The notes beneath the pieces are model-generated. The model saw nothing but the letters and a program-made list of their open reading frames with translations, was not told where the DNA came from and made no database searches. From the IMG/VR virus record IMGVR_UViG_3300013010_000102, positions 1 to 20,563 of that record: a stretch of 20,563 nucleotides of DNA, one strand, 5' to 3'. This stretch comes from a virus. The translations under genes were made by a program, and so were the position numbers. This document shows, one piece after another, positions 194-20,434 of the stretch (the stretch's first letter is position 1; each line of letters opens with the position of its first letter).

Positions 194-427
194 TTATTTC
201 CTTTGCTGATGTTTTAAGAATTGAGAGTTGTCAGACATTGCTCTCATACGTTTAAAAAATCGTTCTGCTCCTTTGAGCTCATTCCAGAGTTGCTCACGCT
301 GCTCTGGTTTTTTAGTTTGTAGCCATTCATTAAATACTTCTTCTTGAACGGCACCAGTTAATTCTTGCCAGATGTCATCATCCATAATCTGCTGGGCACG
401 AGAGCCAAGCTGCATGTCGTTATCCAT
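194..427 (-). CDS. Small phage protein of unknown function between portal and scaffold-like gene
   Basis: This 77-residue protein is hydrophilic and rich in Gln, Glu and Lys, with two Trp-containing helices (WQELTGAVQEEVFNEWLQ, then EQLWNELKGAERFFKRM). It has no signal peptide or membrane segment. Its ATG overlaps the end of the portal gene by eight bases, so the two are probably translationally coupled, and the acidic scaffold-like gene starts three bases after its stop. The position suggests a small virion or assembly factor. I do not recognise the family. Confidence 0.75.
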   Translation of the reverse strand: MDNDMQLGSRAQQIMDDDIWQELTGAVQEEVFNEWLQTKKPEQREQLWNELKGAERFFKRMRAMSDNSQFLKHQQRK

Positions 428-2516: not shown

Positions 2517-2648
2517 TTATTTTTTCCGTGGTGGTTTTTTATAAGATTTTTTAGCGGCTTGCTTGGCTGGCTTGGTGCCCAATATCTTATCGATTTCTTG
2601 AGCGGCGGCGGTACGTCCGGCTTCACTGTAGGGATAGCTTGTTGGCAA
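2517..2648 (-). CDS. Small basic protein upstream of portal, TTG start
   Basis: A 43-residue frame reads MPTSYPYSEAGRTAAAQEID and ends in a Lys/Pro-rich tail (KKSYKKPPRKK). The start is inferred to be TTG at 2648, because GGAG lies seven bases before it and the frame has an in-frame stop (TGA) shortly upstream. Its TAA directly abuts the portal ATG, so the two are likely coupled. The basic tail suggests nucleic-acid contact or a disordered end. The coding call rests on the fit to the operon and the biased composition. I do not know the function. Confidence 0.6.
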   Translation of the reverse strand: MPTSYPYSEAGRTAAAQEIDKILGTKPAKQAAKKSYKKPPRKK

Positions 2649-2695
2649 GTTGAGTCTCCATATATGAGTTTTTCAAGGTTATATTTTATCAGATT

Positions 2696-2716
2696 TGTCA
2701 TCTCTTAGTTGACAAT
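2696..2716. promoter_or_regulatory. Inverted repeat TTGTCA-N9-TGACAA upstream of the portal operon
   Basis: Two six-base arms (TTGTCA at 2696-2701, TGACAA at 2711-2716) are separated by nine bases, about 50 bases upstream of the small gene that precedes the portal. It differs from the palindrome seen at the other phage promoters. It could be a regulator site or the -35 part of a promoter on either strand, and could be chance in this AT-rich spacer. Confidence 0.25.
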
Positions 2717-2735
2717 AAAAACAAAAAGCTAGTTT

Positions 2736-2813
2736 TATGCTAAAATATATGCACCAGAACCCCATATCTGGTTCCCCTGTTAGACCTCGCTCCCCTCCAT
2801 TCGGAGGGTGAGC
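2736..2813. other. Intergenic stretch with two consecutive hairpins and an extended -10-like box
   Basis: Between terminase and the portal operon there are two inverted repeats. One is ACCAGA at 2754-2759 pairing with TCTGGT at 2767-2772. The other is an 11-bp stem with one mismatch and a four-base loop, GCTCCCCTCC at 2789-2798 against GGAGGGTGAGC at 2803-2813. On the plus strand an extended -10-like TATGCTAAAAT (2736-2746) lies about seven bases before the first hairpin. Neither strand has a proper T-run after the stems, so a standard terminator is not clear. An RNA processing or attenuation structure after terminase, or a short plus-strand RNA, would both fit. Confidence 0.4.
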
Positions 2814-2819
2814 CCTAAT

Positions 2820-4229
2820 TTAGACGATGCCGGAGATGTTTCTCTTAATGGGTGTTTTCCAGGAAGTACGAGTATTGGTGCCATGTAAAGCGGTCGCGGC
2901 TTGTCCGGCAAAACACAGACAGACTGCATCAGCCCTATCGGGCGATGGCAGTCCACGTTTTCGCATTTGATCTTTAGATTCAATCTGCATCTTCCCGGAG
3001 GACGTAAACTTATACCGAGGACTGACTAACTCTGCTAAGAGCTTATCGTCTTTTGGTAACTTGGAATCTCTGGCCTCTAAGAACGCCTTTACTTTAAACC
3101 ACAGCTCGGCACGTAAATTAAAATAAGTGCCTTTCATGGACGGCGACTCAGCCGTATTAATACCGATAGCGGGTAGCCCTAACTCCACAAGACGATCCAC
3201 TACCCCACCACCAACCCCAATGGAGTCAATCAGGATTTCTGCTGGGCGTTCTCGTTCTTCCAAGGCATCGTACTCGGCTTTTACGGCCCCGGTTAATTGC
3301 ATCAAATCTAAACCACGCCAAATCTGTACGGCCTTAATTACCTTGCCTTGACGTTTAGCGAGAGCACTAGCAGCGGAGCCAAACCTAGCAACGTCTAACC
3401 CCCACACCACATTCACATCCTTATCAATCTCAATAGCACGGTGTTGAGCAGTCTCAACCAACTCTAATGGAATCGCGGTATCATCATCGGCTAGAGGAAA
3501 CTCACCTAATACCCGGACTCGGTAAGCATTAGAATCCTCACCATAGCGTATCTTCATTTCGTCAACATACTCTTCGGATACTCGTGGTGAATCCACACAC
3601 GATACTTTTCGAGTCCACCAGGTATCTGCCATACGGTGATGTGTATCAAAAAAGAAACCACTGGATCGGGTTGGGTTGCCTAATAAAATTGTTGAGGCAT
3701 GTTCACCAGACATAGAACCGGCGGCTGACTCAAACACAGATTCTGGGATACCAGAGGCTTCATCGGCAACCAATAAGACATTATCGGAATGCACTCCCTG
3801 GAGTGCCTCTGGCGTCTCAGCGCGAGAGGTACGGCAAGAGATAAAGGCTTCGGTCGGGGATGCTTTCAGCATAATCCGGTCGGCTTTGGCCTCTAATAAA
3901 TCAGCAATGACTGGCGGGAGCTCAGTCATCCAGCGTTTACATTCTGCAAACAAGGCATCAAATAACTGGGCACTGGTCGGTGCGGTCACGACGATTTTGC
4001 ATGGGTATCGCGTAATTAAGAACCATAACATCGCCCATGAGGCAGCGGTGGATTTACCAGTACCATGCCCAGAGCGGATTGAGATACGCCGTTCGCCTCT
4101 GGCGACGGCTTGGAGGAATTCGGCTTGCCACGGATCGGGGGTGGCTTTTAAGACGATCTTGACGAAGTTAACTGGATTGTTACGGTAGGACTGCAGAAAA
4201 TTAATAAATGGATTGGTTTGCTCCGACAT
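2820..4229 (-). CDS. terL: Terminase large subunit (DNA packaging ATPase/nuclease)
   Basis: This motor pumps phage DNA into the prohead through the portal and cuts the concatemer. The 469 residues carry an N-terminal ATPase with Walker A SGHGTGKST (53-61) and Walker B VLLVADEAS (151-159, acidic pair D156/E157), then a coupling-like segment LLGNPTR (182-188). The C-terminal RNase H-like nuclease shows the three expected acidic positions: D279 in WGLDVARFG, D335 in ILIDSIGVGGG and D434 in DRADAV. The start is preceded by AAGGAA, and it overlaps the end of a 48-residue gene by 29 bases. The portal operon follows downstream. Both domains look intact. Confidence 0.95.
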   Translation of the reverse strand: MSEQTNPFINFLQSYRNNPVNFVKIVLKATPDPWQAEFLQAVARGERRISIRSGHGTGKSTAASWAMLWFLITRYPCKIVVTAPTSAQLFDALFAECKRWMTELPPVIADLLEAKADRIMLKASPTEAFISCRTSRAETPEALQGVHSDNVLLVADEASGIPESVFESAAGSMSGEHASTILLGNPTRSSGFFFDTHHRMADTWWTRKVSCVDSPRVSEEYVDEMKIRYGEDSNAYRVRVLGEFPLADDDTAIPLELVETAQHRAIEIDKDVNVVWGLDVARFGSAASALAKRQGKVIKAVQIWRGLDLMQLTGAVKAEYDALEERERPAEILIDSIGVGGGVVDRLVELGLPAIGINTAESPSMKGTYFNLRAELWFKVKAFLEARDSKLPKDDKLLAELVSPRYKFTSSGKMQIESKDQMRKRGLPSPDRADAVCLCFAGQAATALHGTNTRTSWKTPIKRNISGIV

Positions 4230-4347
4230 GACGTTCCTTTTCTTTTAAGTAGCGTAAGTATTTAATAAGGTATTTTTTATTCACGAATTTGATTAACGTG
4301 CCATCACGATTGAGGCATTCTGGTGAGGTGTAGCTAGGTTTCTTCAT
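4201..4347 (-). CDS. Small basic protein overlapping the start of terL
   Basis: An open frame of 48 residues starts MKKPSYTSPECLNRDG and continues with a Lys/Tyr-rich segment (FVNKKYLIKYLRYLKEKE). GAGG lies nine bases before the ATG, which itself overlaps the end of the preceding small gene. The 3' end runs 29 bases into terL in another frame. It fills the gap that would otherwise lie before terL and fits the overlapping style of the operon. Its function is unknown, and it may serve partly to couple translation to terL. Confidence 0.55.
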   Translation of the reverse strand: MKKPSYTSPECLNRDGTLIKFVNKKYLIKYLRYLKEKERHVGANQSIY

Positions 4348-4468
4348 CTAAGGAATCCTCGTATTGGCGTTGTCGGATATCTTCGGCTTCTTCTTCGGTC
4401 ATCTCAGTGGATTCAATGACGTCCTCGAATTGAGGACCGTCATTAATCCAACAAGGTATTTCTGGCAT
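4334..4468 (-). CDS. Small acidic protein between resolvase and terL
   Basis: The chosen start is the ATG at 4468, which shares one base with the stop of the serine recombinase (TAATG). A longer upstream frame would run inside the recombinase gene. The 44-residue product starts MPEIPCWINDGPQFED and is strongly acidic (TEEEAEDIRQ). It has no recognisable domain. It is in the same leftward operon as terL, so a phage accessory role is likely. Confidence 0.55.
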   Translation of the reverse strand: MPEIPCWINDGPQFEDVIESTEMTEEEAEDIRQRQYEDSLDEET

Positions 4469-5133
4469 TAAGCCACCGCCTTTTGCACGAGACGACGCAC
4501 TGTCTGATAGCTGCAATCCCAACCGAATCGGTATTCAATCTCTTCGCCAATCTCCCGGAATGAGGCACCCTCGTCACGACGCTCTAACATAATATCAATC
4601 GCCTTGTCACGGAGCTCATGTTCGCGTAACACGGCTTTTCTGCCGACACCCTTAACAAAGAACCCGAATGGCACTAGACCACCGGCATAACCGCCTATCT
4701 TGCGTTTCTCTTTACGGGCATTACCGAGGCGCTCAACGATCTTCATGCGTTCGGTTTCAGCGAATACAGCGAGGATATTGAGGATTAATTTGGCATGGGT
4801 GTTGTTGTCATTACATACATCACCCAGATCCTTAATAATTAACTTAACGCCGAGTTGCTTGAGGTGATAGATGTCGTTTAGGCAGTTCCTAGTGTCGCGT
4901 GTGAAGCGATCTAGGTTCGAGACTATGATCGTATCGCCTTCGGCGAATTCAAGGTCCTTGATGGCTGGACGAAGCATAAACTCCATTGCACCAGTGACGC
5001 CCGAATCCTCCAGGTAAGTATCAATCGTTAAGTCCTCGGACATGGCCAAACCAGAGCATCGTCGACGTTGGGCGTCGAGCGATGTCTCGGTGCTGCTGTT
5101 GAGATAAGAGGTACGAATATAGCCGTATATCAT
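4468..5133 (-). CDS. Serine recombinase / resolvase (small serine recombinase family)
   Basis: Small serine recombinases cut and rejoin DNA at short sites through a 5'-phosphoserine. The N-terminal catalytic domain shows YIRTS with R7 and nucleophile S9, then NLDRFTRDTRN with R76 and R79. A long helix (ILAVFAETERMKIVERLGNA) is typical of the dimer interface. The C-terminal part (FREIGEEIEYRFGWDCSYQTVRRLV) looks like a helix-turn-helix DNA-binding domain. At 221 residues it is the size of a resolvase/invertase. The ATG overlaps the previous stop by four bases (ATGA), with GAGGAGG in front. It is odd to find it between the two terminase genes in a phage that also has a tyrosine integrase. It may act in multimer resolution or DNA inversion, or be a passenger gene. 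Confidence 0.88.
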   Translation of the reverse strand: MIYGYIRTSYLNSSTETSLDAQRRRCSGLAMSEDLTIDTYLEDSGVTGAMEFMLRPAIKDLEFAEGDTIIVSNLDRFTRDTRNCLNDIYHLKQLGVKLIIKDLGDVCNDNNTHAKLILNILAVFAETERMKIVERLGNARKEKRKIGGYAGGLVPFGFFVKGVGRKAVLREHELRDKAIDIMLERRDEGASFREIGEEIEYRFGWDCSYQTVRRLVQKAVA

Positions 5134-5892: not shown

Positions 5893-5920
5893 ATTGTATA
5901 CCTTAAAGGTAACAAGTCAA
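5893..5920 (-). promoter_or_regulatory. Leftward promoter with repressor-type palindrome in its spacer
   Basis: On the minus strand TTGACT (5915-5920) and TACAAT (5893-5898) are 16 bases apart and lie 45 to 75 bases before the first gene of the operon. The spacer is filled by the palindrome shared by the other phage promoters (core ACCTTAAAGGTAACAA, within 5894-5915). A protein bound there would block RNA polymerase, so repression by the phage CI/Cro system is the natural reading. Confidence 0.7.
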
Positions 5921-6246: not shown

Positions 6247-6468
6247 CTATGAATTATCATACATAAACAACGGTGTTCCATCACCAACATACGCACCTGA
6301 AACATTAAACTCGATATACTCTAGTGCTTCTTCAGTATCCATATCATCACGATTAACTAGGATATCTACACACTTATCTACACTGTAAATTAATCGATTG
6401 CTGCTTGTTGCAAGGTCATAGACCTGGCCAACAATAGCAGCGTCAAAACCATCAGCTTTAATCATCAT
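6247..6468 (-). CDS. Small phage protein, paralogue of the gene at 6646-6858
   Basis: The 73 residues begin MMIKADGFDAAIVGQVYD and end with NVSGAYVGDGTPLFMYD. The pattern (Ile-rich start, GFD-AI-G, a Tyr/Asp segment, a Met...EEA helix, F--NV, G-P-F-Y) is repeated in the gene two places upstream, so the two are duplicated copies. Small proteins of this kind are common in phages and have no known function to my knowledge. The ATG overlaps the previous gene's end, with GGAG nine bases ahead. It is the last gene of the operon. Confidence 0.8.
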   Translation of the reverse strand: MMIKADGFDAAIVGQVYDLATSSNRLIYSVDKCVDILVNRDDMDTEEALEYIEFNVSGAYVGDGTPLFMYDNS

Positions 6469-11063: not shown

Positions 11064-11111
11064 TTGATGAATGTTATTAAGTAGTATATGTTGTTACCTT
11101 GAGGGTAACTT
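11064..11111 (+). promoter_or_regulatory. Promoter and operator in front of the CI-like gene
   Basis: TTGATG (11064-11069) and TATGTT (11087-11092) are 17 bases apart. The palindrome TTGTTACCTTGAGGGTAAC starts within the -10 and covers the probable start of transcription (11091-11109), so binding would shut the promoter. The gene's ATG is 23 bases further on behind GGAGGG. This suits autoregulation by the CI-like protein or repression by the Cro-like one. Confidence 0.65.
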
Positions 11112-11133: not shown

Positions 11134-11538
11134 ATGAAAACTAAAAAGAAACGACATAAGCACTCAATTGCGAAAAGAATTTCACAGTTGCGCGCAAAAC
11201 ATAAATATACACAACGCACTCTAGGTGCATTAGTTGGTGTCTCACACAACACCATAAAAAAATGGTGTGATGGGGACTTGGTACCGAAAAGGCAGAACAT
11301 TAAAAAATTGGCTAAAGTGTTTGAAGTTAGTCCAGCTTTTTTAATGTTCGGCTTGGGCGATAAACATGCAAACCCATTAGCCGATCCAATGACGCAGGTA
11401 GCAGTAGATATTTTTCAATGTTTATCTACGGCAAATAAAGAGCAGATTATTACCTTAATGACTGCGTTACTTGAAAGTGCTAAAGGCAGTGACGTCTTTA
11501 GTGAGAAATCATCAAATGGGAGTAGTAATGGATCATAA
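11134..11538 (+). CDS. CI-like HTH repressor without peptidase domain
   Basis: The 134-residue protein starts with a basic arm (MKTKKKRHKHS), followed by an HTH_3/XRE domain: ISQLRAKHKYTQRTLGALVG then SHNTIKKWCDGDLVPK and IKKLAKVFEVSPAFLMFG (about 15-70). The C-terminal half is a short helical part (IFQCLSTANKEQIITLMTALL), probably for dimerisation. There is no S24/LexA-type peptidase domain, so RecA-driven self-cleavage is not expected, and induction must work another way. GGAGGG precedes the ATG. It is divergent from the Cro-like gene and followed without a gap by an unknown gene. It is the best candidate for the lysogeny repressor that reads the repeated palindromes. Confidence 0.85.
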   Translation: MKTKKKRHKHSIAKRISQLRAKHKYTQRTLGALVGVSHNTIKKWCDGDLVPKRQNIKKLAKVFEVSPAFLMFGLGDKHANPLADPMTQVAVDIFQCLSTANKEQIITLMTALLESAKGSDVFSEKSSNGSSNGS

Positions 11539-12277
11539 ATACATAGAGGCTGGGCGCATTATCAGCATGAAACAAAGATGTGAGAAATACATTGAGAAAA
11601 TGACTGACGATTTTATAAATTTTGATGGTGAAGAGGTACATTTCGCGCATGTCACAGGTAAAGCGATACTGCGTAGAGAGTTGTGTATAGCCAAAGATTT
11701 AAAACAAAGTCTTGACAATAGAAACATATCAGTCGAGAAATTTATGCAGCATATGGTACGTGATGCAATGCACCGGATGGTACAACACTGGTTGACAACT
11801 TTACCGGCGTATGAACCTGACGCAGAGTATCCAGGTGGTCATCTTTTGAATATATTTGCTTGGTCAGAAATGAGCGGCACTTATGGTTATATAATACTTG
11901 GAGCGCAAGCATACGTCTGGAAGGTTGAGTCAGATATGGTTGAAGATGTACAGGAATACATGAAATTAAGTAATCGTTTTTTTGAATGTATCAACACGGC
12001 CAAAGGTGAGGTTTGTAAAGCATATTTACGGTTTAAACCAGTGGATATGGATGAGATACCGCAAGTGCATCCACAGGCGCATATTGACTCTGCAAATTTA
12101 CCGGTGTTACTACATAATGCTAAAACTTCTGGTGACGTCATGTTAAACATTGCTGAACATTTAATAGCGCGCACCATTGATAATAGAAACCCAAGTATCA
12201 TACCTGATATTGTGCATACAAGTGAACGTGATAAGTTACTTAACATCATGGTACGCCCTGAAAAACACAATATCTAA
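11528..12277 (+). CDS. Unknown protein co-transcribed with the CI-like repressor
   Basis: The start at 11528 is chosen because GGGAG lies ahead of it and it overlaps the repressor stop by 11 bases. A longer reading would run inside the repressor gene. The 249 residues begin MDHKYIEAGRIISMKQRCEK and are soluble, with many His, Met and Trp, a middle part FAWSEMSGTYGYIILGAQAY, and no signal peptide or known motif. It shares the repressor transcript and ends before a strong terminator. It is therefore likely to be expressed in the lysogen, and genes in that place often affect host phenotype or exclude other phages. That is only an inference from context. Confidence 0.75.
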   Translation: MDHKYIEAGRIISMKQRCEKYIEKMTDDFINFDGEEVHFAHVTGKAILRRELCIAKDLKQSLDNRNISVEKFMQHMVRDAMHRMVQHWLTTLPAYEPDAEYPGGHLLNIFAWSEMSGTYGYIILGAQAYVWKVESDMVEDVQEYMKLSNRFFECINTAKGEVCKAYLRFKPVDMDEIPQVHPQAHIDSANLPVLLHNAKTSGDVMLNIAEHLIARTIDNRNPSIIPDIVHTSERDKLLNIMVRPEKHNI

Positions 12278-12300
12278 AAGTAAGACAAGTTAAAAAACAA

Positions 12301-12326
12301 CCACCCTATTCTGGGTGGTTTTTTTT
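12301..12326 (+). terminator. Intrinsic terminator of the repressor operon
   Basis: CCACCC and GGGTGG form a six-pair stem with a six-base loop (12301-12318), followed at once by eight T's. It lies 24 bases past the stop of the unknown gene and before the next promoter. This is a textbook Rho-independent terminator on the plus strand. Confidence 0.93.
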
Positions 12327-12339
12327 GTCTAAATAATAT

Positions 12340-12381
12340 TTGTTACCTTAAAGGTTGCAATCTTAACTAAATTAATATAAT
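12340..12381 (+). promoter_or_regulatory. Operator and promoter of the rightward recombination operon
   Basis: The palindrome TTGTTACCTTAAAGG (12340-12354) runs on into TTGCAA (12355-12360), which may serve as -35. TATAAT follows at 12376-12381 after 15 bases, a little short of the usual spacing. The operator overlaps the -35, so repression by the phage switch proteins is expected. The first gene starts 30 bases further on. Confidence 0.65.
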
Positions 12382-12411
12382 TTATTTCTCACGTTTAACA
12401 GGGGAATAATT

Positions 12412-12621
12412 ATGGAAAATTTGCATGAAGCCATCAGCGATATATCAACTGAAATACGAGATCAAATTGGCGACACTGCATTTCCATTTACCAAACAATG
12501 GCAAATCAAATCTCCTGAAGCATTAAACAAATTTAAACAAGAATACCCGGATTTATATAGTCGCTTGATGTACGCCATCAAACAGCGTGAAGAATTCTAT
12601 TGTCCGGCATGTAACGAATAA
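12412..12621 (+). CDS. Small hypothetical protein with C-terminal CPAC, first of the recombination operon
   Basis: The 69-residue protein begins MENLHEAISDISTEIRDQIG and is soluble, with a helix KFKQEYPDLYSRLMYAIKQ and a C-terminal CPAC motif that could bind metal or pair with another protein. A GGGG ribosome site stands eight bases before the ATG. It is 23 bases from the Sak4-like gene. The family is not recognised. Confidence 0.7.
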   Translation: MENLHEAISDISTEIRDQIGDTAFPFTKQWQIKSPEALNKFKQEYPDLYSRLMYAIKQREEFYCPACNE

Positions 12622-12644
12622 CATAACAACTAAGGAGTAAAACT

Positions 12645-13424
12645 ATGCCAATTAAATTGGTCAAGGGAAGAGTAGAAACGCCACTCAATATGGTCATATC
12701 TGGTGTTAATGGTGTCGGTAAAAGCACATTCGCGGCGGGTATGCCAAAGCCTTTATTTATTGATTTAGAAAAAGGCACCAACCATTTAGATGTGGATCGA
12801 GTGCATGCACAAACCGATATAGAGGTTTTAGATATCTGTCACGAGCTTATTGAGAGTAAACATCCATACAAAACATTAGTCTTAGATTCATTGGATTTTT
12901 ATGAAGCTATGGTTCATAAAGCGGTGGTACGTGAATTCTCACGTAAAAAAGAAGGCATTGAGGATATCAGTGATATTGAGTATGGCCGTGGCTATTCTCA
13001 TGCTCTGAAAAAAATACGTCATACTTTAAATGTGTTTGACAAAGTGATTGATTCTGGCATGAATGTTTGCTTGATCGTGCACACTCACACCATCACTCAT
13101 CAAGATCCATTGCTTGAGCCGTACTCTAAATTAACTTTAAAGCTACATGCTAAAGCTGCCAGTCTTGTCAAGGAATGGACGTCATTTCTTCTCTTCGCAA
13201 ACTACCAGGTTAGAACGGTATCGCGTGGTGAAGGTTTCAATAAAAGAACCGTTGCAGTAGGTGACGACTCAAGGGTTCTATTCACTCGTGGATCAACCGG
13301 GTTCGATGCAAAATCTCGACGCCCTATTGTAAACGATCAGGGAAAGCATGAAATCCCATTGGATTTCAATGCTTTCAAAACAGCCTATAACAATGCTTTT
13401 AAAGCAGAGGAAACTAAACAATGA
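12645..13424 (+). CDS. Sak4-like RecA-fold ATPase (phage recombinase)
   Basis: The 259 residues form one RecA/AAA_24 domain: Walker A SGVNGVGKST (19-28), LFIDLEKG, Walker B TLVLDSLDF (about 78-86), and CLIVHTHT near 140, which corresponds to the sensor strand. A C-terminal part with RGSTGFDAKSR follows. Phage proteins with this short P-loop layout (Sak4/AAA_24) are single-strand annealing or RAD51-like recombinases and normally stand next to a single-strand-binding protein and an exonuclease, as here. GGAG precedes the ATG. I infer a recombination-dependent role in replication and repair of phage DNA. Confidence 0.82.
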   Translation: MPIKLVKGRVETPLNMVISGVNGVGKSTFAAGMPKPLFIDLEKGTNHLDVDRVHAQTDIEVLDICHELIESKHPYKTLVLDSLDFYEAMVHKAVVREFSRKKEGIEDISDIEYGRGYSHALKKIRHTLNVFDKVIDSGMNVCLIVHTHTITHQDPLLEPYSKLTLKLHAKAASLVKEWTSFLLFANYQVRTVSRGEGFNKRTVAVGDDSRVLFTRGSTGFDAKSRRPIVNDQGKHEIPLDFNAFKTAYNNAFKAEETKQ

Positions 13425-13957
13425 GTACAAGTGTAGCGTTCGGAACAGAATTACAAGATATGCCAGTTCTTGGCCCCGGTGAATTTCCACCACCAAAAAT
13501 CTTAGATGCCGGTCAATATAAAGTGACGGTCAGTAAGGCAAGATTGTTGGATAAACAAGATTATAAAACCGTCTTAATTGCAATGGAAGAGATAGACTCT
13601 GGAGCAGAGATCGTCAGTTGGATTGAAGTCGAAAAAGAAGGGGTAGCACAACGAGATAAGTTACTTATCTTGAAGTTTGCCTTTGATTGTTTTGGTGTAG
13701 ATATCCCTGACAGTATTGATGAAGATGGTCTGGGTTTTTTAATTAACAAAATGGGTACCGTACAAACTTACGTTTACGAACCTAAGAGCGGTAAGCCCGC
13801 CTCAAACCGAGTGCATCGTTTCCTTCGGGAATCAGCGACAACGGCTGTCGCACCCAAACCGGTTAAGGCAGAAGTTAAACGTGAAGAGCTTGATGATTCT
13901 GAAATCTTGAGCAGCGATGACAGTGCTAACCCTTCGTGGTTATCGGACGCTGACTAA
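13421..13957 (+). CDS. Putative phage single-strand DNA-binding protein
   Basis: The 178 residues start MSTSVAFGTELQDMPVLGPG. The middle (residues 25-130) is a strand-rich domain (GQYKVTVSKARLLD, TVLIAMEEID, GTVQTYVYEPKSGK), and the tail is acidic with an aromatic near the end (SSDDSANPSWLSDAD). An OB-like body with an acidic tip is the usual pattern of phage SSB-type proteins, and such genes commonly follow Sak4. It overlaps the ATPase by four bases (ATGA) and the nuclease gene by one. The assignment rests on context and overall layout, not on a strict motif. Confidence 0.6.
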   Translation: MSTSVAFGTELQDMPVLGPGEFPPPKILDAGQYKVTVSKARLLDKQDYKTVLIAMEEIDSGAEIVSWIEVEKEGVAQRDKLLILKFAFDCFGVDIPDSIDEDGLGFLINKMGTVQTYVYEPKSGKPASNRVHRFLRESATTAVAPKPVKAEVKREELDDSEILSSDDSANPSWLSDAD

Positions 13958-15078
13958 TGACTATTGAATCTATCATGGAAGGTGTTGATGAGAAAATGGG
14001 GCAACCTATGTCTCGACGTGGCTACCTTGGTGGCTCTTCATTAGGTAAGGATTGTCCTAGACAACTCTGGCTCGACTGGCGGTGGTGCATGCCACCGCTA
14101 GCCGATGCCAGGTTAGCTCGTATTTTTGCATTAGGGCATCAATTAGAGGACAACATCGCCGACTTCATCCGTGAGGCACCGAAGGTAAAACTAAGGACGC
14201 ATGAACGTGGTGAGCAGATCGGTGGTTCGTTCTTTGGTGGTCATTTACGTTATCACATTGATGGTCTATTAACCGAAGATGGTAAGACTTATCTCTGGGA
14301 ATGTAAGACTGCAAATAACAAGCGCTTTAACCGTTTAAACAAACTCGGCACTCAAGCTAGAGAGGCCGGTGAAACAAAAAATCTTGCGTACTTCGATTGG
14401 GATTCTACCTACGGTGCGCAAGTACATTTTTATGGTGGTGCTCTTAATGAGCAATACCCAGAAGAAGAAATACAAGGTGCTTACGTCACTGTGTATGACA
14501 AAAATACGAGTGCCATCTATGCAGAGCAGATGGACCTCGATCCAATAATGTACAACCAAATGAAGGATAAGGCGTGGTGGCTACTCAATCTAAAAGAACC
14601 CCCACAAGCTGCTTATTCTAAGTCAGCTTTTCAGGTTAAGAATTTTATGTCTGAAGAAGAACGAGGGATCTATTTAGGCGAATTAACGCCTCTGAACCCG
14701 CTGTGCCGTACTTGTAAGTTTGCTAGACCTAACCTAACAGATCGGCAAAAACGCGGTCAGTGGGGTTGTACGCGCACTAAGAAAATTATCAATCATAAAC
14801 AACAACTGAAGGGTTGCTTGGATCACGAGTGGATTCCAGGCTTAGTACCGGCCAAACATCTTGGTAATAACAAGTATGAAAAGAATGACGTGGTGTTTTA
14901 TAACGTCGGTGCCAGTGACCCCATGAATAAAGAACACAGCTACACATCTAGTGAGATTGCGTATCTGTGTCGTAACGATTTTGATTTTGAGTCTAACGAT
15001 CAAATAACTGAAGTAAGAAAAACATTCGATGTTAAACAACAAATAGAGGTAACTAACAATGCTAACAATGAGGTTTAA
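13957..15078 (+). CDS. Cas4/RecB-like PD-(D/E)XK exonuclease with cysteine cluster
   Basis: The RecB-family nuclease motifs are all visible: H61 and E64 in LGHQLEDNI, D102 in YHIDGLL, E115/K117 in WECKTAN, and Q155/Y159 in AQVHFYGG. C33 in GKDCPRQLW and a C-terminal set C250/C253 (CRTC), C271 and C287 are placed as in Cas4/AddB nucleases, where one N-terminal and three C-terminal cysteines hold an iron-sulphur cluster. A cluster is therefore possible here. With the Sak4-like and SSB-like genes it forms a standard set: it resects ends and the partners protect and pair the strand. It has 373 residues, is complete, and starts at a TAATG junction. Confidence 0.85.
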   Translation: MTIESIMEGVDEKMGQPMSRRGYLGGSSLGKDCPRQLWLDWRWCMPPLADARLARIFALGHQLEDNIADFIREAPKVKLRTHERGEQIGGSFFGGHLRYHIDGLLTEDGKTYLWECKTANNKRFNRLNKLGTQAREAGETKNLAYFDWDSTYGAQVHFYGGALNEQYPEEEIQGAYVTVYDKNTSAIYAEQMDLDPIMYNQMKDKAWWLLNLKEPPQAAYSKSAFQVKNFMSEEERGIYLGELTPLNPLCRTCKFARPNLTDRQKRGQWGCTRTKKIINHKQQLKGCLDHEWIPGLVPAKHLGNNKYEKNDVVFYNVGASDPMNKEHSYTSSEIAYLCRNDFDFESNDQITEVRKTFDVKQQIEVTNNANNEV

Positions 15079-15229
15079 ACATATATTATTACTAAGCTGT
15101 ATTGCAGTGATTTACGTGTATTCATCTAACTTAGATTATCAGGATCATGTACGTGACAACCAACTGTATTGTGAAATGATTATGGACGGAGCGTATCCAA
15201 ATTGGAGGGAAATTGATTGCACTACTTGA
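15059..15229 (+). CDS. Small membrane-anchored phage protein
   Basis: A 56-residue frame overlaps the end of the nuclease gene by 20 bases and has GAGG nine bases before its ATG. After MLTMRFK it has one hydrophobic segment (HILLLSCIAVIYVYS, about 8-22), then a polar, Asp/Tyr-rich end with two cysteines (CEMIMDGAYPNWREIDC). It may be a single-pass inner-membrane protein or have an uncleaved signal. Similar tiny proteins are common in early phage regions. The function is unknown. Confidence 0.65.
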   Translation: MLTMRFKHILLLSCIAVIYVYSSNLDYQDHVRDNQLYCEMIMDGAYPNWREIDCTT

Positions 15230-15449
15230 TGGGGTTAATGGAATTAACCGGGAGCATTTTTATACACAACTACCATTCGCCATACGTGGCACTAAAGATT
15301 GGGATCGTCGTGAAAAGATGCGTAAAAAAATGGGGTGCTATTGTGTGTGCTTAGGTCCAATACCAGTACATTGCGCTGATGGCGAAAAATGGCAGCATAA
15401 GAATAAAATGGAAGTCAGGAATGACAGACTAATAAGGACGAAAAAATGA
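15213..15449 (+). CDS. Small Cys-rich hypothetical protein, TTG start
   Basis: The 78-residue reading starts at TTG 15213 with GGAGGG only three bases ahead, so the exact start is uncertain. It overlaps the previous gene by 17 bases and ends in an ATGA overlap with the next one, which supports the frame. The product is basic, with KDWDRREKMRKKMGCYCVC and a later HC pair that might bind metal. A competing short frame from the ATG at 15229 is less consistent with the junctions. No family is recognised. Confidence 0.5.
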   Translation: MIALLDGVNGINREHFYTQLPFAIRGTKDWDRREKMRKKMGCYCVCLGPIPVHCADGEKWQHKNKMEVRNDRLIRTKK

Positions 15450-15673
15450 AAGAAGTACCACAGGATTTAATGACACTAAAAAAGTTTAATGAAACTTACC
15501 CGGATTTACATGCGTCGCTGCCTTCGTTACGAAACGAAGCTAGACGACGCTATGAGAATGGATTGATGGAATCCAATGTCATCATGGAAAAACGATCTGG
15601 GAGCGATCCACAGGCACGATCTGCTTTATTGATTAGTCCCTCACGTTACTTTATGTGGTTGGGCTCTCACTAA
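15446..15673 (+). CDS. Small DNA-binding-like protein, candidate excisionase
   Basis: The 75-residue protein starts MKEVPQDLMTLKKFNETYPD and follows the pattern of small winged-helix proteins found next to phage integrases: an N-terminal MTLKKF-ETYP helix, PSLRNEARRRYENGLMESNVI, and a closing LISPSRYFMWL strand/helix. That order (helix, L-R--Y-NGL--S-VI, then a basic wing ending F--WL) is common in excisionase-type proteins. It runs towards the integrase gene and its 3' end overlaps that gene by 23 bases. A directionality factor for excision is my inference; it could also be a general regulator. Confidence 0.55.
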   Translation: MKEVPQDLMTLKKFNETYPDLHASLPSLRNEARRRYENGLMESNVIMEKRSGSDPQARSALLISPSRYFMWLGSH

Positions 15674-16784
15674 ACATTTTTTTAGATAAGCTCTTAGCTC
15701 GTTTTTGTTGTGGCTTCATATACCGATCAAGCATATTGGTATTTTTCCAACCACCAAAAGATTTGACTTCATCAACATTAGCACCCTTCTCAAATATGTA
15801 GGTAGCCCAAGCATGACGAAAATGATGCAATACAATCTTTTCGTTGAACACTGGGTCAGGTTTATCTAATTGAGCTTTTTTCTTAATAATCTCAAACTTA
15901 CCAGTAAAACTGTTTGCCCATTCTTTTGATCGAGGTGCTGGAGGAAACACTCTATCACCAAAAAACAATGCCTTCTGAGTTTGCAATTTTAATGCTATTT
16001 GTTTGGATACATAAATATATCGGTCCTCATGGTTCTTAGTATCTTTTAAGAATATTTCAGCACCATCCTCGTTGAAATGAATTCTATCCCAGGTAAGCAT
16101 GGCAATCTCATTTCTTCTGGCACCTGTCTGCCATAAAATTTCTAAGTACAACGGCGTAAACTGCCAGACCCAACCTTTAGTTTCTAAATGTTCTTTATCT
16201 TTTGCTATTTGATGCGCAGCTTGGAGCAGAGCATCAAATTCATTGTGCGTAATTAATCGCCTACGTTGATTGATTGAACGACTACGATTCATGTCATCAA
16301 TAGGATTTATCAGACACCATTTTTGCTGTAATGCAATTTTAAACAGTACATCTAAAAACGTCTCATAATCGTATTTTGTTTTTGAGCTCCAATTACGTTC
16401 TTGCTCTATCTCATATAAACGATTAGTAACATCATCAGTGGTAAATGTTTTGATCGGAATACCACCCCAATGGTAATCTAATAAAATACGATATCCAGCT
16501 ACATAACGATTAAATTGATACTGTGATTTATCCCCATTGATATTTAATGATTGTGGATTTTTTATAATCCAATTTACGGCCTGATTAAACGTTACATTGT
16601 TTTGTAACTTTTCTGGTATTGGCTCATTAGCTCTTATCTTAATTTTTAATTCTTCAATATATTTTTTTGCTTCACGTGAAGTTTTGAAATATTTATGTAT
16701 TTTCAAACCAATTTTTTTCTTGTTGCACCTTACTAAATAATAAGTTTGTTTTCTTATCACAACTTTTTTCGGTTTTATATTCAT
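15651..16784 (-). CDS. int: Tyrosine integrase
   Basis: This enzyme integrates the phage at its attachment site. The 377 residues show an N-terminal arm-binding part (1-60, basic, IRKQTYYLVRCNKKKIGLKIHK split by strands), a SAM-like core-binding domain (about 62-170) and the catalytic domain. Its active site is complete: R223 in TGARRNE, a Lys in the hairpin KDTKNHEDR (about K250), H320 and R323 in LHHFRHAW, W346 in GGW in place of the usual LGH histidine, and nucleophile Y355 in DRYMKP. It points away from the tRNA fragment, 156 bases off, as usual for integrases beside their att site. It overlaps the candidate excisionase at the 3' end. Confidence 0.95.
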   Translation of the reverse strand: MNIKPKKVVIRKQTYYLVRCNKKKIGLKIHKYFKTSREAKKYIEELKIKIRANEPIPEKLQNNVTFNQAVNWIIKNPQSLNINGDKSQYQFNRYVAGYRILLDYHWGGIPIKTFTTDDVTNRLYEIEQERNWSSKTKYDYETFLDVLFKIALQQKWCLINPIDDMNRSRSINQRRRLITHNEFDALLQAAHQIAKDKEHLETKGWVWQFTPLYLEILWQTGARRNEIAMLTWDRIHFNEDGAEIFLKDTKNHEDRYIYVSKQIALKLQTQKALFFGDRVFPPAPRSKEWANSFTGKFEIIKKKAQLDKPDPVFNEKIVLHHFRHAWATYIFEKGANVDEVKSFGGWKNTNMLDRYMKPQQKRAKSLSKKMFSESPTT

Positions 16785-16840: not shown

Positions 16841-16863
16841 GTGTATAATTTTTGTATAACTTT
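16841..16863. repeat. Tandem arm-type integrase sites, int side
   Basis: GTGTATAATTTT (16841-16852) and TTTGTATAACTTT (16851-16863) are two copies of one motif, with their GTATAA cores 11 bases apart. The same motif occurs twice on the other side of the tRNA fragment, also 11 bases apart. This is what paired arm-type sites of a lambda-like integrase look like. Confidence 0.65.
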
Positions 16864-16939
16864 ACAAAAAAACCCCTTCCCTAATCTTCCTAAGAAAATC
16901 AACAAAGAGGTTTAATATAATTAAATCAATGACTTATCA

Positions 16940-16999
16940 TGGTGCCCGGAGCCGGAATCGAACCGGCACGTCCTTTCGGACAACGGATTTTAAGTCCGT
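16940..16999 (-). other. 3' fragment of tRNA-Leu(UAA): attP core
   Basis: Read on the minus strand, 60 bases match the end of a tRNA-Leu: anticodon stem ACGGA, loop CTTAAAA with anticodon TAA (16990-16992), stem TCCGT, a variable arm GTCCGAAAGGAC, a T-arm GCCGG-TTCGATT-CCGGC, and acceptor TCCGGGCA with CCA. The D-arm and the 5' acceptor strand (expected GCCCGGA) are absent; the next bases are unrelated AT-rich DNA. The gene is therefore not a working tRNA. Phages that integrate into tRNA genes carry this 3' part so that the host gene is restored. The integrase is on the 3' side of the fragment. Confidence 0.85.
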
Positions 17000-17119
17000 G
17001 TCTTTTAAGAGCATAGCGTAATCATATTACTCATATTAGCTTATCTAGGGGCTTATAGAGTATCTTGATTATTATAGAATAATATAAATATGAGCAATTG
17101 TTATAAAAAAAAGGAAAAA
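17000..17119. other. AT-rich DNA between attP core and right arm sites
   Basis: I see no gene in this stretch. It contains an AT-only inverted repeat TATTAT/ATAATA near 17070-17090 and a run of A's at 17104-17112. That run reads as T's after the FecR-domain gene and might help to end its leftward transcript. It probably belongs to the attP arm. Confidence 0.35.
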
Positions 17120-17143
17120 TTTGTATAACTTTTGTATAACTTT
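17120..17143. repeat. Tandem arm-type integrase sites, far side
   Basis: TTTGTATAACTTT occurs at 17120-17132 and again at 17131-17143 in the same orientation as the pair on the int side, with cores 11 bases apart. The second copy reaches into the stop codon of the FecR-domain gene, so the attP arm and the operon end are fitted together. Confidence 0.7.
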
Positions 17144-18270
17144 TAGCTGCCTTGTCTAATATTAATAGTAGATGATGATCCACCATTAACTGCAATTCGA
17201 TTTACCTTCCCCTCTTGCTCCATAATAACAGTTGTAGAATCACCACGAGATAAACTTATTTGTATTGAATCTTGAACGTTACGAATAAACTTTATCTCAT
17301 TATCGTTAACAAAGGTATTGATCTGGGTATCAGCATCAAATCCGATAGCAGTACCTTTTATGCCATCTGCTGCTAATGATTGATTTGCTTTATTAAGCTC
17401 ATCCACCTCTTGAATGACATCTAAGAGATCCTCTAGAAAGTTCACTTGCAAGGCATCAATATCTAACTCGGTATACTCCAGATTATCTTCTTGCAATTCG
17501 TCTTTTTCTAATTCATCAAACTCTAAAAAATCTACATCTAATAAATTAACTGCATTAGTGTTCGTGCTATCGTCTATAGTCTCAACTTCATCAGGTGGAT
17601 TTACTATGAGCATGTTATCAATCATGCTCAGAGTAAGGTCTAATATTACCGATGGTGTTGGGGCCGTTTCAAAATTATAAACTGTAGTAGCCTCATACGG
17701 TTGATTGAGCACTACTTGGCCTAACGCAGTGGTTACGACAATCTCACCAGAGCTATTCCCAAACTCATCTGGTAACAGTATCACCAGGGCTTCACCTGTC
17801 TCTGCAACCGTAATGGTGAAATCTGTCCCCCGAATACCAATGGTGGCAGAGTTTGTTCTAATCTTAATATTTTCTTTTTTAATACGTTTTGTTTTACTGG
17901 TAATAAATCTGCCTGTGCCTTTCACAAAATTCAAGGCAAGGCTAGATTTATCCGGGTCAGGATCGTATACAAAATTATCAATCGTAACGTTAGAGTGCTC
18001 TGTAAGGCGTATAACGCTCTCATCAGCGAACGTAACGCCCATACGACCATTGGCTGTCTCTAAGACATCCATGCTCTGTAATGCGAAATTAAGCGTACTG
18101 TCATACGCCTTATCTCTAACTACTCGACTGACTCCTTTTAACTCTGTAATACTGCCTATATCAGCAGCCAATACTGGTCCCAGAATTAGCTTGCTGCACA
18201 CATACAGTGCCATTATTGCCGTTAGAAGTAATCTTGAGCCAATCGTTATCAGTGGTATTAGCCTGGTCAA
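17143..18270 (-). CDS. Exported FecR-domain protein with acidic pentad repeats and curlin-like C-terminus
   Basis: After an N-terminal hydrophobic segment ending GPVLA-ADIG (cleavage near 36) comes a FecR-type domain (about 60-160: GVTFADESVIRLTEHSNVTI and LNFVKGTGRFIT, then IRTNSATIGIRGTDFTI). From 242 to 281 there are eight pentads of the form [D/N]-x-L-[D/E/Q]-x with Leu at 244, 249, 254 and so on to 279. The last 50 residues resemble curlin repeats (QEGKVNRIAVNGG). The start is uncertain: TTG at 18270 has AGGA ahead, and the ATG at 18213 gives a shorter signal; both overlap the curlin-like gene. It is the last gene of the curli-like operon. There is no transmembrane anchor or sigma factor beside it, so a structural or export-linked role is more likely than FecR-type signalling. 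Confidence 0.8.
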   Translation of the reverse strand: MTRLIPLITIGSRLLLTAIMALYVCSKLILGPVLAADIGSITELKGVSRVVRDKAYDSTLNFALQSMDVLETANGRMGVTFADESVIRLTEHSNVTIDNFVYDPDPDKSSLALNFVKGTGRFITSKTKRIKKENIKIRTNSATIGIRGTDFTITVAETGEALVILLPDEFGNSSGEIVVTTALGQVVLNQPYEATTVYNFETAPTPSVILDLTLSMIDNMLIVNPPDEVETIDDSTNTNAVNLLDVDFLEFDELEKDELQEDNLEYTELDIDALQVNFLEDLLDVIQEVDELNKANQSLAADGIKGTAIGFDADTQINTFVNDNEIKFIRNVQDSIQISLSRGDSTTVIMEQEGKVNRIAVNGGSSSTINIRQGS

Positions 18271-18868
18271 TTGTAAACGTCCTTGAGTTTCCAGTGTGAT
18301 CTAAATAAAAGTAACCGCCAGCAAAACCATCCATATCCGTCGTGACCTGATTTTGATCGCCATCTAAATCTACATAATGTGTTGCTGCATCTACATCGAT
18401 GTCTGCATGAATTTGATTGCTATCACCTTGCACAATCCAATCTAAATCTGTGCCACTCGCTAAGGCGGATGTGGCCAGATCAAGAGTGAAGGTGTTACTA
18501 CCCCCGGTAACGGCGACGTTAACGTTGGAGTTATCGGCACCAAAGGCGTTGGTTGGATCCATTTTTGATGTAAAGGTATTACTATCGCCATCAAAATTAA
18601 AAAATCCCGTATATGAATCTGCATACATATCACCTAAGAATTTATTTGTATTACCGATCTGATTAACATCTAATGTCATGGACGTTCCATCCAAGTCCAA
18701 AGCTGTCATACTGCCAGCGGCAGCAGTCAAACCGCCAATAATATTTCCTGAGCCCAATTGCTCAAAATCCATGTTAGCTGTCACACCGACTTGATCTACA
18801 AAGATTTCATTATCTGCTGCAAACGCCAGTGGTGTTATTAATAAAGCCATTACACTTAATCTATTCAT
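18161..18868 (-). CDS. Curlin-like repeat protein (CsgA/CsgB-type fibre subunit)
   Basis: The 235 residues have a signal peptide (MNRLSVMALLITPLAFA) and then about eight degenerate repeats of 22-27 residues, each with a G-x-x-N-type turn: QVGVTAN (26), QLGSGN (37), QIGNTN (70), DGDSN (93), GGSN (122), QGDSN (147), DGDQN (169), TGNS (192), NGNN (216). Strands alternate around each turn, as in curlins, which stack as a beta-solenoid and form surface amyloid. It ends with two cysteines (C223, C235). The repeats are more Asp-rich than in E. coli CsgA and lack its strict S-Q-G-N-Q register. Its ATG overlaps the csgG stop, so it is likely the cargo of that pore. A fibre subunit is a good inference; amyloid formation is not shown. 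Confidence 0.8.
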   Translation of the reverse strand: MNRLSVMALLITPLAFAADNEIFVDQVGVTANMDFEQLGSGNIIGGLTAAAGSMTALDLDGTSMTLDVNQIGNTNKFLGDMYADSYTGFFNFDGDSNTFTSKMDPTNAFGADNSNVNVAVTGGSNTFTLDLATSALASGTDLDWIVQGDSNQIHADIDVDAATHYVDLDGDQNQVTTDMDGFAGGYFYLDHTGNSRTFTIDQANTTDNDWLKITSNGNNGTVCVQQANSGTSIGC

Positions 18869-19661
18869 AATCCCAATACCCCCGACTTTTTCCTATCATA
18901 ATCATTTCGTATACTCCGGCTTCAATAGCCTTTTGGAGTGCGATAGCTGTTGATTCATTCTCAGCAACACCGCCCTCTATTTCTATTAACTTTGCATTTT
19001 CATCGAGAAACCGAAAAACATCTTGACTTAGGGCCACCGATAAAATCTTCTTCTTAGTCAGGACTTCTATTAAGACTTCGCCGGTTGAGACCGACACCAG
19101 TCTTAATGAGACACTGACTGAATCTTCACGCCACTCTTTAGAGCCACCAATACCGAGATACCTGGCACCTACTCCACCGCTCTTTTCATTCGCATTATAG
19201 CTCACGACAGCGCCTTGCATGAGTAATCCTGCTAGTAACAATGGTTTTAGGGCACTGTCCTCTTCAAAATTCTCACGAGTATTGCGGATAAGCTGCCGTT
19301 CTTTAGTCAGCGAGTCTAAACCGACCCGCTCGACTACTCTAAAGAATGCACCGTTACTGGTGTGTTTTAATGCCCTTATCAAGTACGCCTCTGGCGCTTG
19401 GGTAATGGCACTAGCGAATAATGCAAATTTACCGTTAGATGCTCGTGCCCCGGTTAAGTCTTGCAGACTATTGGGATATACGGCTACCACCGGCTGTCTA
19501 ACTGCTGGTGGAATGTTTCTTAATGCATCGGATTGTAGAGCTTGTACCGATGCACTTTGGATGACGATATGCGGTATGCCGCCATCCTGTAACTCATTAT
19601 AATTGACAGCACAACTAGAAAGTAAAATCACCAATAGGGACTGTAATAGTCGTCGTATCAT
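18861..19661 (-). CDS. csgG: CsgG, curli secretion channel lipoprotein
   Basis: CsgG is an outer-membrane lipoprotein that forms a nonameric pore for curli subunits. The 266 residues start with a lipoprotein signal (LLSSC, lipid-bearing C17). The family's signature follows: a long block close to E. coli CsgG with ALKHTSNGAFFRVVERVGL (98-115), ERQLIRNTREN, GAVVSYNANEKSGGVGARYL (150-169) with GIG after it, LRLVSVSTGEVL, DVFRFLD and a terminal RGYWDYE (RGLWDLQ in E. coli). By hand alignment the constriction Phe56 is kept (F82), but Tyr51 and Asn55 seem to be replaced. It overlaps csgF by 47 bases. Length and all landmarks indicate a working channel. Its presence beside a phage attP is unusual. 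Confidence 0.93.
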   Translation of the reverse strand: MIRRLLQSLLVILLSSCAVNYNELQDGGIPHIVIQSASVQALQSDALRNIPPAVRQPVVAVYPNSLQDLTGARASNGKFALFASAITQAPEAYLIRALKHTSNGAFFRVVERVGLDSLTKERQLIRNTRENFEEDSALKPLLLAGLLMQGAVVSYNANEKSGGVGARYLGIGGSKEWREDSVSVSLRLVSVSTGEVLIEVLTKKKILSVALSQDVFRFLDENAKLIEIEGGVAENESTAIALQKAIEAGVYEMIMIGKSRGYWDYE

Positions 19662-20088
19662 TGCTGCTCTCTTCGGTTATCGTCAATGTAATAGTTTCTT
19701 CGCCTACCTCGTATTCAATTAAATTACCCTCCAGGGTAAGTTGACCTGACTTACTAGGATTTTCACCAAATAACTGCTCGACCATCTGGCGAGATAGTTG
19801 AGCATAAACTCGTGACTCAAAATTACGAATAAAACGAGATAACGTTGAATTTGTTTTCTCTCTTTCGATATCATCAAGAACGGTTTGCTCGTTTTCAATA
19901 ATCTCATTACGCCGATTAGTTTCTTGGTTCTCAATGGTCAGGTAATGTGACGAGGCATTGATGCCAGAAAAACTTGGGCTTTTAAAATTAAATAACAATT
20001 CATCGGCATTGCTGCTGTTTGCTAACAGCAGAAATGCGATTAATCTAATCGTGTCTCTGATCTTTCTTTTCTGCTTTTGTAATGTCAT
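19615..20088 (-). CDS. csgF: CsgF-like curli assembly factor
   Basis: CsgF binds the outer mouth of the CsgG pore and couples secretion to fibre nucleation. This protein has 157 residues (138 in E. coli) with a signal peptide (RLIAFLLLANSSNA, cleavage near 28). The mature N-terminus DELLFNFKSPSFSGINASS is the conserved pore-binding segment (compare TMTFQFRNPNFGG in E. coli). A helical middle (LSRFIRNFESRVYAQLSRQM) and a strand-rich end with LEGNLIEYEVG and TTTITVPIGDF also match the family's layout. The N-terminus before the signal is longer and basic. It overlaps both neighbours, so it is translated together with csgG. Confidence 0.85.
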   Translation of the reverse strand: MTLQKQKRKIRDTIRLIAFLLLANSSNADELLFNFKSPSFSGINASSHYLTIENQETNRRNEIIENEQTVLDDIEREKTNSTLSRFIRNFESRVYAQLSRQMVEQLFGENPSKSGQLTLEGNLIEYEVGEETITLTITEESSNDTTTITVPIGDFTF

Positions 20089-20395
20089 AGGTATCTATCA
20101 GTTCTGGTACTTTTAAAAGTGTTTTAAGCATGACATCGTTTCTTATTAACGATTGATCTATCTGGCGGCACCTATCTATTAAACTGACGATAATGCCGTA
20201 TTGACTGTCTAACTTGGATGATAAACGCTCTTCCATAGCATTCAGTGATGCGTCAACTTTTTCGTCAACGACATCAATCTTGGCTTCCATGCCATCAATA
20301 ATTCGGTTTATAAGTTTCCAGATAAAGAACCCAAGGCCCAGTGCGGAAGCTACTGGAAAGCCAACCTGGTTAATTAGGTTGATAATGTCATCCAT
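20045..20395 (-). CDS. Small single-span membrane protein, YvrJ/holin-like, first gene of the curli-like operon
   Basis: The 116 residues begin MDDIINLINQVGFPVASALG with one hydrophobic span (about 11-31), then a long charged, probably coiled-coil segment (GMEAKIDVVDEKVDASLNAM and onward). The opening NQVGFPVA resembles the YvrJ family and small BhlA/holin-like phage proteins, which have a single membrane helix followed by a charged tail. The AAGG before the ATG lies within the operator at 20400. As first gene of the operon it may help export or act in lysis. Neither is proven by sequence, and a general inner-membrane partner of the module is possible. Confidence 0.65.
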   Translation of the reverse strand: MDDIINLINQVGFPVASALGLGFFIWKLINRIIDGMEAKIDVVDEKVDASLNAMEERLSSKLDSQYGIIVSLIDRCRQIDQSLIRNDVMLKTLLKVPELIDTYDITKAEKKDQRHD

Positions 20396-20399
20396 TATT

Positions 20400-20434
20400 T
20401 TGTTACCTTATAGGTTACTTTGTGTTACAGTAAC
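20400..20434. promoter_or_regulatory. Operator pair in front of the curli-like operon and the divergent gene
   Basis: TTGTTACCTTATAGGTTAC (20400-20418) matches the palindrome of the phage switch region. A second element, GTTACAGTAAC (20424-20434), is a perfect short palindrome with the same half-site. On the minus strand TATAAG inside the first site may be the -10 of the operon. The divergent ATG at 20438 follows directly, so both directions could be controlled together. Confidence 0.65.

What the first reader, a model, noticed from the sequence alone, without database searches (positions are those of the whole stretch)
16940..16999. The tRNA-Leu fragment marks an unintegrated attP, so both flanks are phage DNA
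Only the anticodon-to-CCA part of tRNA-Leu(UAA) is present. At a prophage end the side next to the integrase should carry a complete tRNA, made from the host 5' half and the phage 3' half. The displaced host copy should have phage DNA on its 5' side and host DNA on its 3' side. Here the integrase is on the 3' side and no tRNA 5' half exists, so the junction fits attP of a free or circular phage, or the junction of tandem copies. This puts the curli-like operon on the phage side.
Basis: partly seen in the sequence, partly recalled or inferred. Interest (0 to 1): 0.72.

Follow-up and report, generated by a model that had tools for sequence, protein, structure and literature searches.

The report
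Phage tRNA-Leu attachment site beside curli genes
The tRNA-Leu fragment is the attachment site that a marine phage would use to insert into its host's tRNA gene, so the curli-like genes next to it belong to the phage; sites of this kind are well known, but this one points to the likely host and to the DNA repeats its integrase recognises.

Summary
Window 16940-16999 (minus strand) is the last 60 of 87 nt of tRNA-Leu(UAA), with no 5' part present. With one flanking base it is identical (61/61) to an intact tRNA-Leu in a Woeseiaceae single-cell genome.

Paired 11-bp repeats that look like integrase arm sites flank the core. Across related contigs the repeat type agrees on both sides and tracks the integrase N-terminus. 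L102 is about 98% identical around them, yet both arms and the integrase N-terminus are replaced together. Beyond curli, contig L104/L193 runs into virion genes, and contig L192 links those back to the window's left end, giving a composite circular map of about 36 kb. Curli is phage cargo beside attP.

The single-cell genome carries the predicted displaced copy (core, P' arm, fecR tail; 98%) but no such integrase.

Free or circular phage cannot be told from tandem copies.

The kind is known. The most interesting parts are the exchangeable arm-specificity module and the host tRNA-Leu island that carries several arm types.

The parts
16940..16999 (-). attP core: 3' 60 nt of tRNA-Leu(UAA), anticodon arm to CCA
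   Evidence: 61/61 identity (16939-16999) with host tRNA-Leu L100:4647-4707
16841..16862 (+). P arm: two tandem 11-bp repeats, GTGTATAATTT and TTGTATAACTT
   Evidence: Direct repeat D3; type comparison
17121..17142 (+). P' arm: two tandem 11-bp repeats TTGTATAACTT, ending at the fecR stop codon
16864..16918 (-). Terminator-like hairpin with a U run just after the tRNA CCA; would end the re-formed tRNA transcript at attL
   Evidence: MFE -21.6 kcal/mol, z -5.4 against shuffles; conserved at tRNA-Leu in four host genomes
15651..16784 (-). Tyrosine integrase; residues 1-35 vary with arm type
   Evidence: PF00589 E 3e-20; N-terminus comparison
17143..18270 (-). FecR-domain gene of the curli operon (TTG start uncertain)
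   Evidence: PF04773 E 1e-11, phrog_37870
18161..18868 (-). CsgA/B-like repeat protein (by position and composition only)
   Evidence: No family hit; position between CsgG and FecR as in pelagiphages (PMC9599517)
18861..19661 (-). CsgG outer-membrane pore
   Evidence: PF03783 E 9e-40
19615..20088 (-). CsgF
   Evidence: PF10614 E 5e-21
20045..20395 (-). Small 116-aa protein with an N-terminal hydrophobic stretch, first gene of the operon, overlaps csgF
   Evidence: phrog_18771, unknown function
20400..20420 (.). Operator-like dyad just upstream of the curli operon
   Evidence: Same motif at 5895, 11091 and 12340; 7 matches against 0.01 expected; function inferred

Best explanation
16841-17142 is the complete attP (P arm, core, P' arm) of a temperate tailed phage of a Woeseiaceae-like marine gammaproteobacterium. 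The integrase would bind the core with its core-binding and catalytic domains and the paired 11-bp arm repeats with its N-terminal domain, and recombine the core with the 3' end of host tRNA-Leu(UAA). The phage then supplies the last 60 nt of the tRNA plus a terminator hairpin, so the tRNA gene stays whole at attL, and the displaced fragment marks attR. The curli operon is phage cargo between the virion genes and attP. Shown: sequence identities, arm repeats, their joint exchange with the integrase N-terminus, virion-type genes beyond curli, and an attR-type scar in a host genome. Inferred: binding, catalysis, and whether this molecule was free or one of tandem copies.
For: Core identical to host tRNA-Leu. 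Arm repeats agree in type on both sides wherever both are visible: window and L104 TTGTATAACTT; L102 and L106-L108 TTGTGCAAATT; L105 TTGGATACTTT. Integrase N-terminus versus rest: window-L102 33% vs 99% (arms differ); window-L104 100% vs 92% (arms same). DNA by segment: window-L102 int C-part 98%, int N-term 66%, P arm 64%, core 100%, P' arm 67%, fecR 98%; window-L104 int N-term 100%, P arm 95%, P' arm 91%, fecR 73%. Virion-type genes beyond curli in L104 and linked by L192 to window position 1. attR-type scar G001:C28:286-1005, 98% identical, on the contig with intact tRNA-Leu and tRNA-Cys.
Against: No intact prophage seen: no integrase match at E 1e-20 in 107 family genomes, a search without a positive control. 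The record is a linear fragment without end redundancy. The circular map is a composite of related contigs, not one molecule. The AlphaFold model of the integrase is poor (mean pLDDT 49).
Confidence: 0.93

Rival explanations
1. Tandem prophages: the junction is between two neighbouring copies (same phage, or relatives with the same arm type) integrated head to tail at tRNA-Leu. The curli genes are then the distal end of the upstream copy.
For: The sequence at the junction would be identical. The host locus shows repeated core fragments and several arm types, so serial integration at this site has happened.
Against: No intact prophage of this integrase family in the genus or family genomes. All five comparable virus contigs show the same two-sided phage arrangement. 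Neither is decisive.
Confidence: 0.2
2. Junction of two different elements: the curli cassette is an independent mobile element or host island DNA that happens to end at the same tRNA fragment, and only the left side is this phage.
For: fecR-tail plus core scars occur in a bacterial genome without the integrase. Host cassettes there are bounded by the same fragment.
Against: Curli is followed by virion-type genes in L104. Right and left arms switch type together between phages. L192 connects that side to the window's portal. The host scar holds only the end of fecR.
Confidence: 0.04
3. Chance or decayed tRNA fragment unrelated to this integrase; the true attachment site lies elsewhere.
For: Integration was not observed directly.
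Against: 61/61 identity, int 156 b away, arm repeats on both sides, and conservation of the arrangement in five further contigs.
Confidence: 0.02

Closest known systems
attP of temperate phages that target tRNA or tmRNA genes and carry paired 11-bp arm-type sites, e.g. Cluster K mycobacteriophages (PMC3203893)
   Same: Core equals the 3' part of a tRNA-type gene next to int; pairs of 11-bp arm repeats flank the core; a stem-loop terminator lies between core and one arm pair; related phages differ in arm consensus together with integrase N-terminal residues.
   Different: There the differences within subcluster K1 are a few base positions and two residues. Here the variable part of the repeat and about 35 N-terminal residues are exchanged between phages that are about 98% identical on either side.
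Viral curli (T8SS) operons of pelagiphages and Melnitz-like phages (PMC9599517, PMC9004378)
   Same: Gene order CsgF, CsgG, CsgA/B-like, FecR.
   Different: Here the operon sits at the attP edge of a phage with an integrase; the text of PMC9599517 has no mention of an integrase. No histidine kinase gene precedes csgF in the window.
Additive flexible genomic islands at tRNA genes (Alteromonas PMC4119200; Methylophilaceae PMC10872708, which also describes tycheposons)
   Same: The host tRNA-Leu locus carries gene cassettes separated by tRNA 3' fragments.
   Different: No close integrase of this family was found in the genus genomes. Phage-type arm scars are recognisable at several cassette borders.

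Membership tests
tRNA-targeting tyrosine-integrase attP | Identity block between phage and the 3' end of a host tRNA gene | tested here: met
   61/61 with tRNA-Leu(UAA) of G001
tRNA-targeting tyrosine-integrase attP | Tyrosine integrase gene adjacent to the core | tested here: met
   15651-16784, PF00589
tRNA-targeting tyrosine-integrase attP | Arm-type repeats on both sides of the core | tested here: met
   16841-16862 and 17121-17142
tRNA-targeting tyrosine-integrase attP | Phage DNA on both sides of the core | tested here: met
   Terminase and portal on one side; virion-type genes beyond curli in L104/L193 and L192
tRNA-targeting tyrosine-integrase attP | Observed integration (attL and attR of an intact prophage) | tested here: inconclusive
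   No intact prophage in 107 family genomes; an attR-type scar and tRNA-Leu genes with phage-type P arms were found
tRNA-targeting tyrosine-integrase attP | Integrase N-terminal domain binds the arm repeats | not testable with these tools
   Supported only by co-variation and a low-confidence three-strand, one-helix prediction, the layout described for such domains in PMC8138268
End of a single prophage (attL or attR) | Complete tRNA on the integrase side, or host DNA beside the displaced copy | tested here: not met
   No tRNA 5' half; phage on both sides
Viral curli (T8SS) operon | CsgF, CsgG and FecR in the viral order | tested here: met
   order compared with PMC9599517
Viral curli (T8SS) operon | CsgA/B fibre subunit | tested here: inconclusive
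   18161-18868 has no family hit
Additive tRNA island or tycheposon (host tRNA-Leu locus) | Cassettes bounded by repeats of the tRNA 3' end | tested here: met
Additive tRNA island or tycheposon (host tRNA-Leu locus) | Resident tyrosine recombinase | tested here: inconclusive
   No close match to this integrase in the genus; other recombinases were not searched

The most novel reading that the evidence does not exclude
In this phage group the arm-binding part of the integrase and the arm repeats on both sides of the core behave as one exchangeable specificity module: at least four types in phages, plus one or two more at host tRNA-Leu genes, all using the same tRNA. This could let several prophages or gene cassettes sit in tandem at one tRNA without triggering each other's excision, and so help build the shuffled tRNA-Leu cassette island seen in the host genus.
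Probability: 0.3. Interest if true: 0.65.

Novelty: new member of a known kind. Interest (0 to 1): 0.45.

Why it matters
It settles that the curli operon is carried by the phage and sits in the usual place for lysogenic-conversion cargo. It gives an uncultured curli phage a likely host (61/61 tRNA core and a 98% identical scar). It also supplies natural pairs of nearly identical phages that differ only in integrase N-terminus and arm sites, which makes arm-site recognition, and whether different arm types allow several elements to share one tRNA gene, directly testable.

Tried and rejected
Terminal redundancy or circularity of the window: none found. Intact prophage in the genus or family: none at the threshold used. 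CsgG search of the virus collection found only L102/L103. The core in other virus contigs: except for L004 (= L102), matches were confined to the tRNA region. Reading G011 as an empty attB: rejected, because a P'-arm remnant lies 1.4 kb downstream of its tRNA-Leu. AlphaFold of the integrase: too poor for a fold search, so none was run. The pattern scan for terminators missed the hairpin at 16864-16918 (loop and stem outside its rules), but folding shows it. Rfam: only a sub-threshold tmRNA 3'-end match at the fragment.

Full report
What is there. The window is a linear 20,563-base virus record. At 16940-16999 on the minus strand lies the 3' part of tRNA-Leu(UAA): 60 of 87 nt, from the 5' strand of the anticodon stem to CCA. 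ARAGORN finds no tRNA, and the tRNA 5' half is absent even with three mismatches. To one side is a tyrosine integrase (15651-16784), and beyond it early genes, terminase and portal. To the other side are FecR, a CsgA/B-like protein, CsgG, CsgF and a small 116-aa protein.

Which tRNA and which host. A 34-base pattern from the anticodon side occurs in the GTDB species collection only in two contigs of one genome, the Woeseiaceae single-cell genome AG-313-J15 (G001). Its contig C28 has an intact tRNA-Leu(UAA) next to tRNA-Cys. Window 16939-16999 is identical to that gene over 61 of 61 bases. The anticodon-side flank of the phage core (17000 onward) has no resemblance to the tRNA 5' half, so the boundary of identity is sharp.

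Arm sites. Two tandem 11-bp repeats lie left of the core (16841-16862) and two lie right of it (17121-17142), all in the same orientation. In related virus contigs the same positions carry paired repeats of another sequence. In every contig where both arms are visible, the two arms agree: window and L104 TTGTATAACTT; L102 and L106-L108 TTGTGCAAATT; L105 TTGGATACTTT. L188, with only one arm visible, has TTGAGAACTTT.

Co-exchange with the integrase. Integrase residues 1-35 follow the arm type, not the general relatedness. Window-L102: 33% identity in the N-terminus, 99% in the rest, different arms. Window-L104: 100% and 92%, same arms. At DNA level, window-L102 are about 98% identical in int and fecR but 66%, 64% and 67% in the int N-terminus, P arm and P' arm. 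Window-L104 show the reverse, 100%, 95% and 91% against 73% in fecR. Such linked replacement on both sides of an almost unchanged core is best explained by both arms serving the same integrase. It is the strongest evidence that both flanks belong to one element. That residues 1-35 form the arm-binding domain is inferred from this, from the literature on tyrosine recombinases (PMC8138268) and weakly from a low-confidence structure prediction with three strands and one helix.

Virion genes beyond the curli side. L104/L193 has the same order (integrase, core, curli), and beyond the 116-aa gene it runs into virion-type genes. In L105 the slot beside the P' arm holds a NIDO-like protein and other genes instead of curli, again followed by those virion-type genes. 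L192 overlaps the window's first kilobase (portal end, 88% DNA identity; 98% at protein level) and at its other part matches the L193 virion-type genes at 95% over 4.9 kb. It also encodes capsid-, tail- and endolysin-like proteins by inspection. Adding the stretches gives a composite circle of about 36 kb. No single contig spans it.

How it would work. Recombination of the core with the host tRNA 3' end would give attL = host tRNA 5' part + phage core, followed by a hairpin with a U run (16864-16918 minus; -21.6 kcal/mol, z -5.4) that can end the tRNA transcript, then int. attR would be the curli end + P' arm + displaced tRNA fragment + host DNA.

The scar in the host genome. G001:C28:286-1005 equals window 16939-17661 at 98%: core, P' arm and the last 174 codons of fecR, joined to a TonB-like gene. 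The genome has no match to this integrase. But the orientation is that of attR, the homology stops inside fecR and no other curli gene is there, so a relic of a past prophage is the better explanation. The same genome's intact tRNA-Leu is followed by a P arm of the L105 type, and G012, G014 and G015 carry still other arm types at or near tRNA-Leu.

The host locus. In the genus of G001, the region downstream of tRNA-Leu(UAA) holds several tRNA-Leu 3' fragments between one- to three-gene stretches, and gene families appear in different orders in different genomes. C17 and C28 of G001 probably abut, since both end in a MORN-repeat gene. Islands of this general kind are described in Alteromonas and Methylophilaceae (PMC4119200; PMC10872708). 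Some assemblies are fragmented, so the shuffling needs confirmation.

Regulation lead. A dyad TTGTTACCYTNARGGTWACAA occurs at 5895, 11091 (before the repressor-like gene), 12340 and 20400, directly upstream of the curli operon (7 matches on both strands against 0.01 expected). It may be a repressor operator. L102 lacks the exact half-site.

What stays open. A free or circular phage, a replication concatemer and tandem prophages share this junction, and the data here do not separate them. The integrase reaction, arm binding and the benefit of curli are not tested. Viral curli with the same gene order is known from pelagiphages (PMC9599517), and paired 11-bp arm sites whose consensus varies with the integrase N-terminus are known from Cluster K mycobacteriophages (PMC3203893). 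The finding is therefore a well-supported new member of a known kind, with an unusually clean case of arm-module exchange.

Noticed in passing
L099 (G001:C17) 11293-15610, L100 (G001:C28) 286-4734, L130, L131, L132, L133: Host tRNA-Leu(UAA) locus is an island of small gene cassettes separated by tRNA-Leu 3' fragments, in different order in different genomes of the genus, with phage arm scars of several types.
   Followed up: partly
window 5895-5915, 11091-11111, 12340-12360, 20400-20420: Repeated dyad TTGTTACCYTNARGGTWACAA, possibly repressor operators; one copy sits directly upstream of the curli operon.
   Followed up: partly
window 4468-5133 (-): A second recombinase, of the serine resolvase/invertase type (PF00239), encoded beside the terminase in a phage that already has a tyrosine integrase.
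   Followed up: no
L105 4201-7571: In the slot occupied by curli in the window, this relative carries a NIDO-like surface protein (weak Pfam match) and an Asn/Thr-repeat protein: the site beside attP seems to hold exchangeable surface-protein cargo.
   Followed up: partly
L101 (G001:C25) 3852-3911 and 6277-6376; L135: Further tRNA-Leu-like 3' fragments next to tRNA-Met and nuo genes, apart from the main locus.
   Followed up: no
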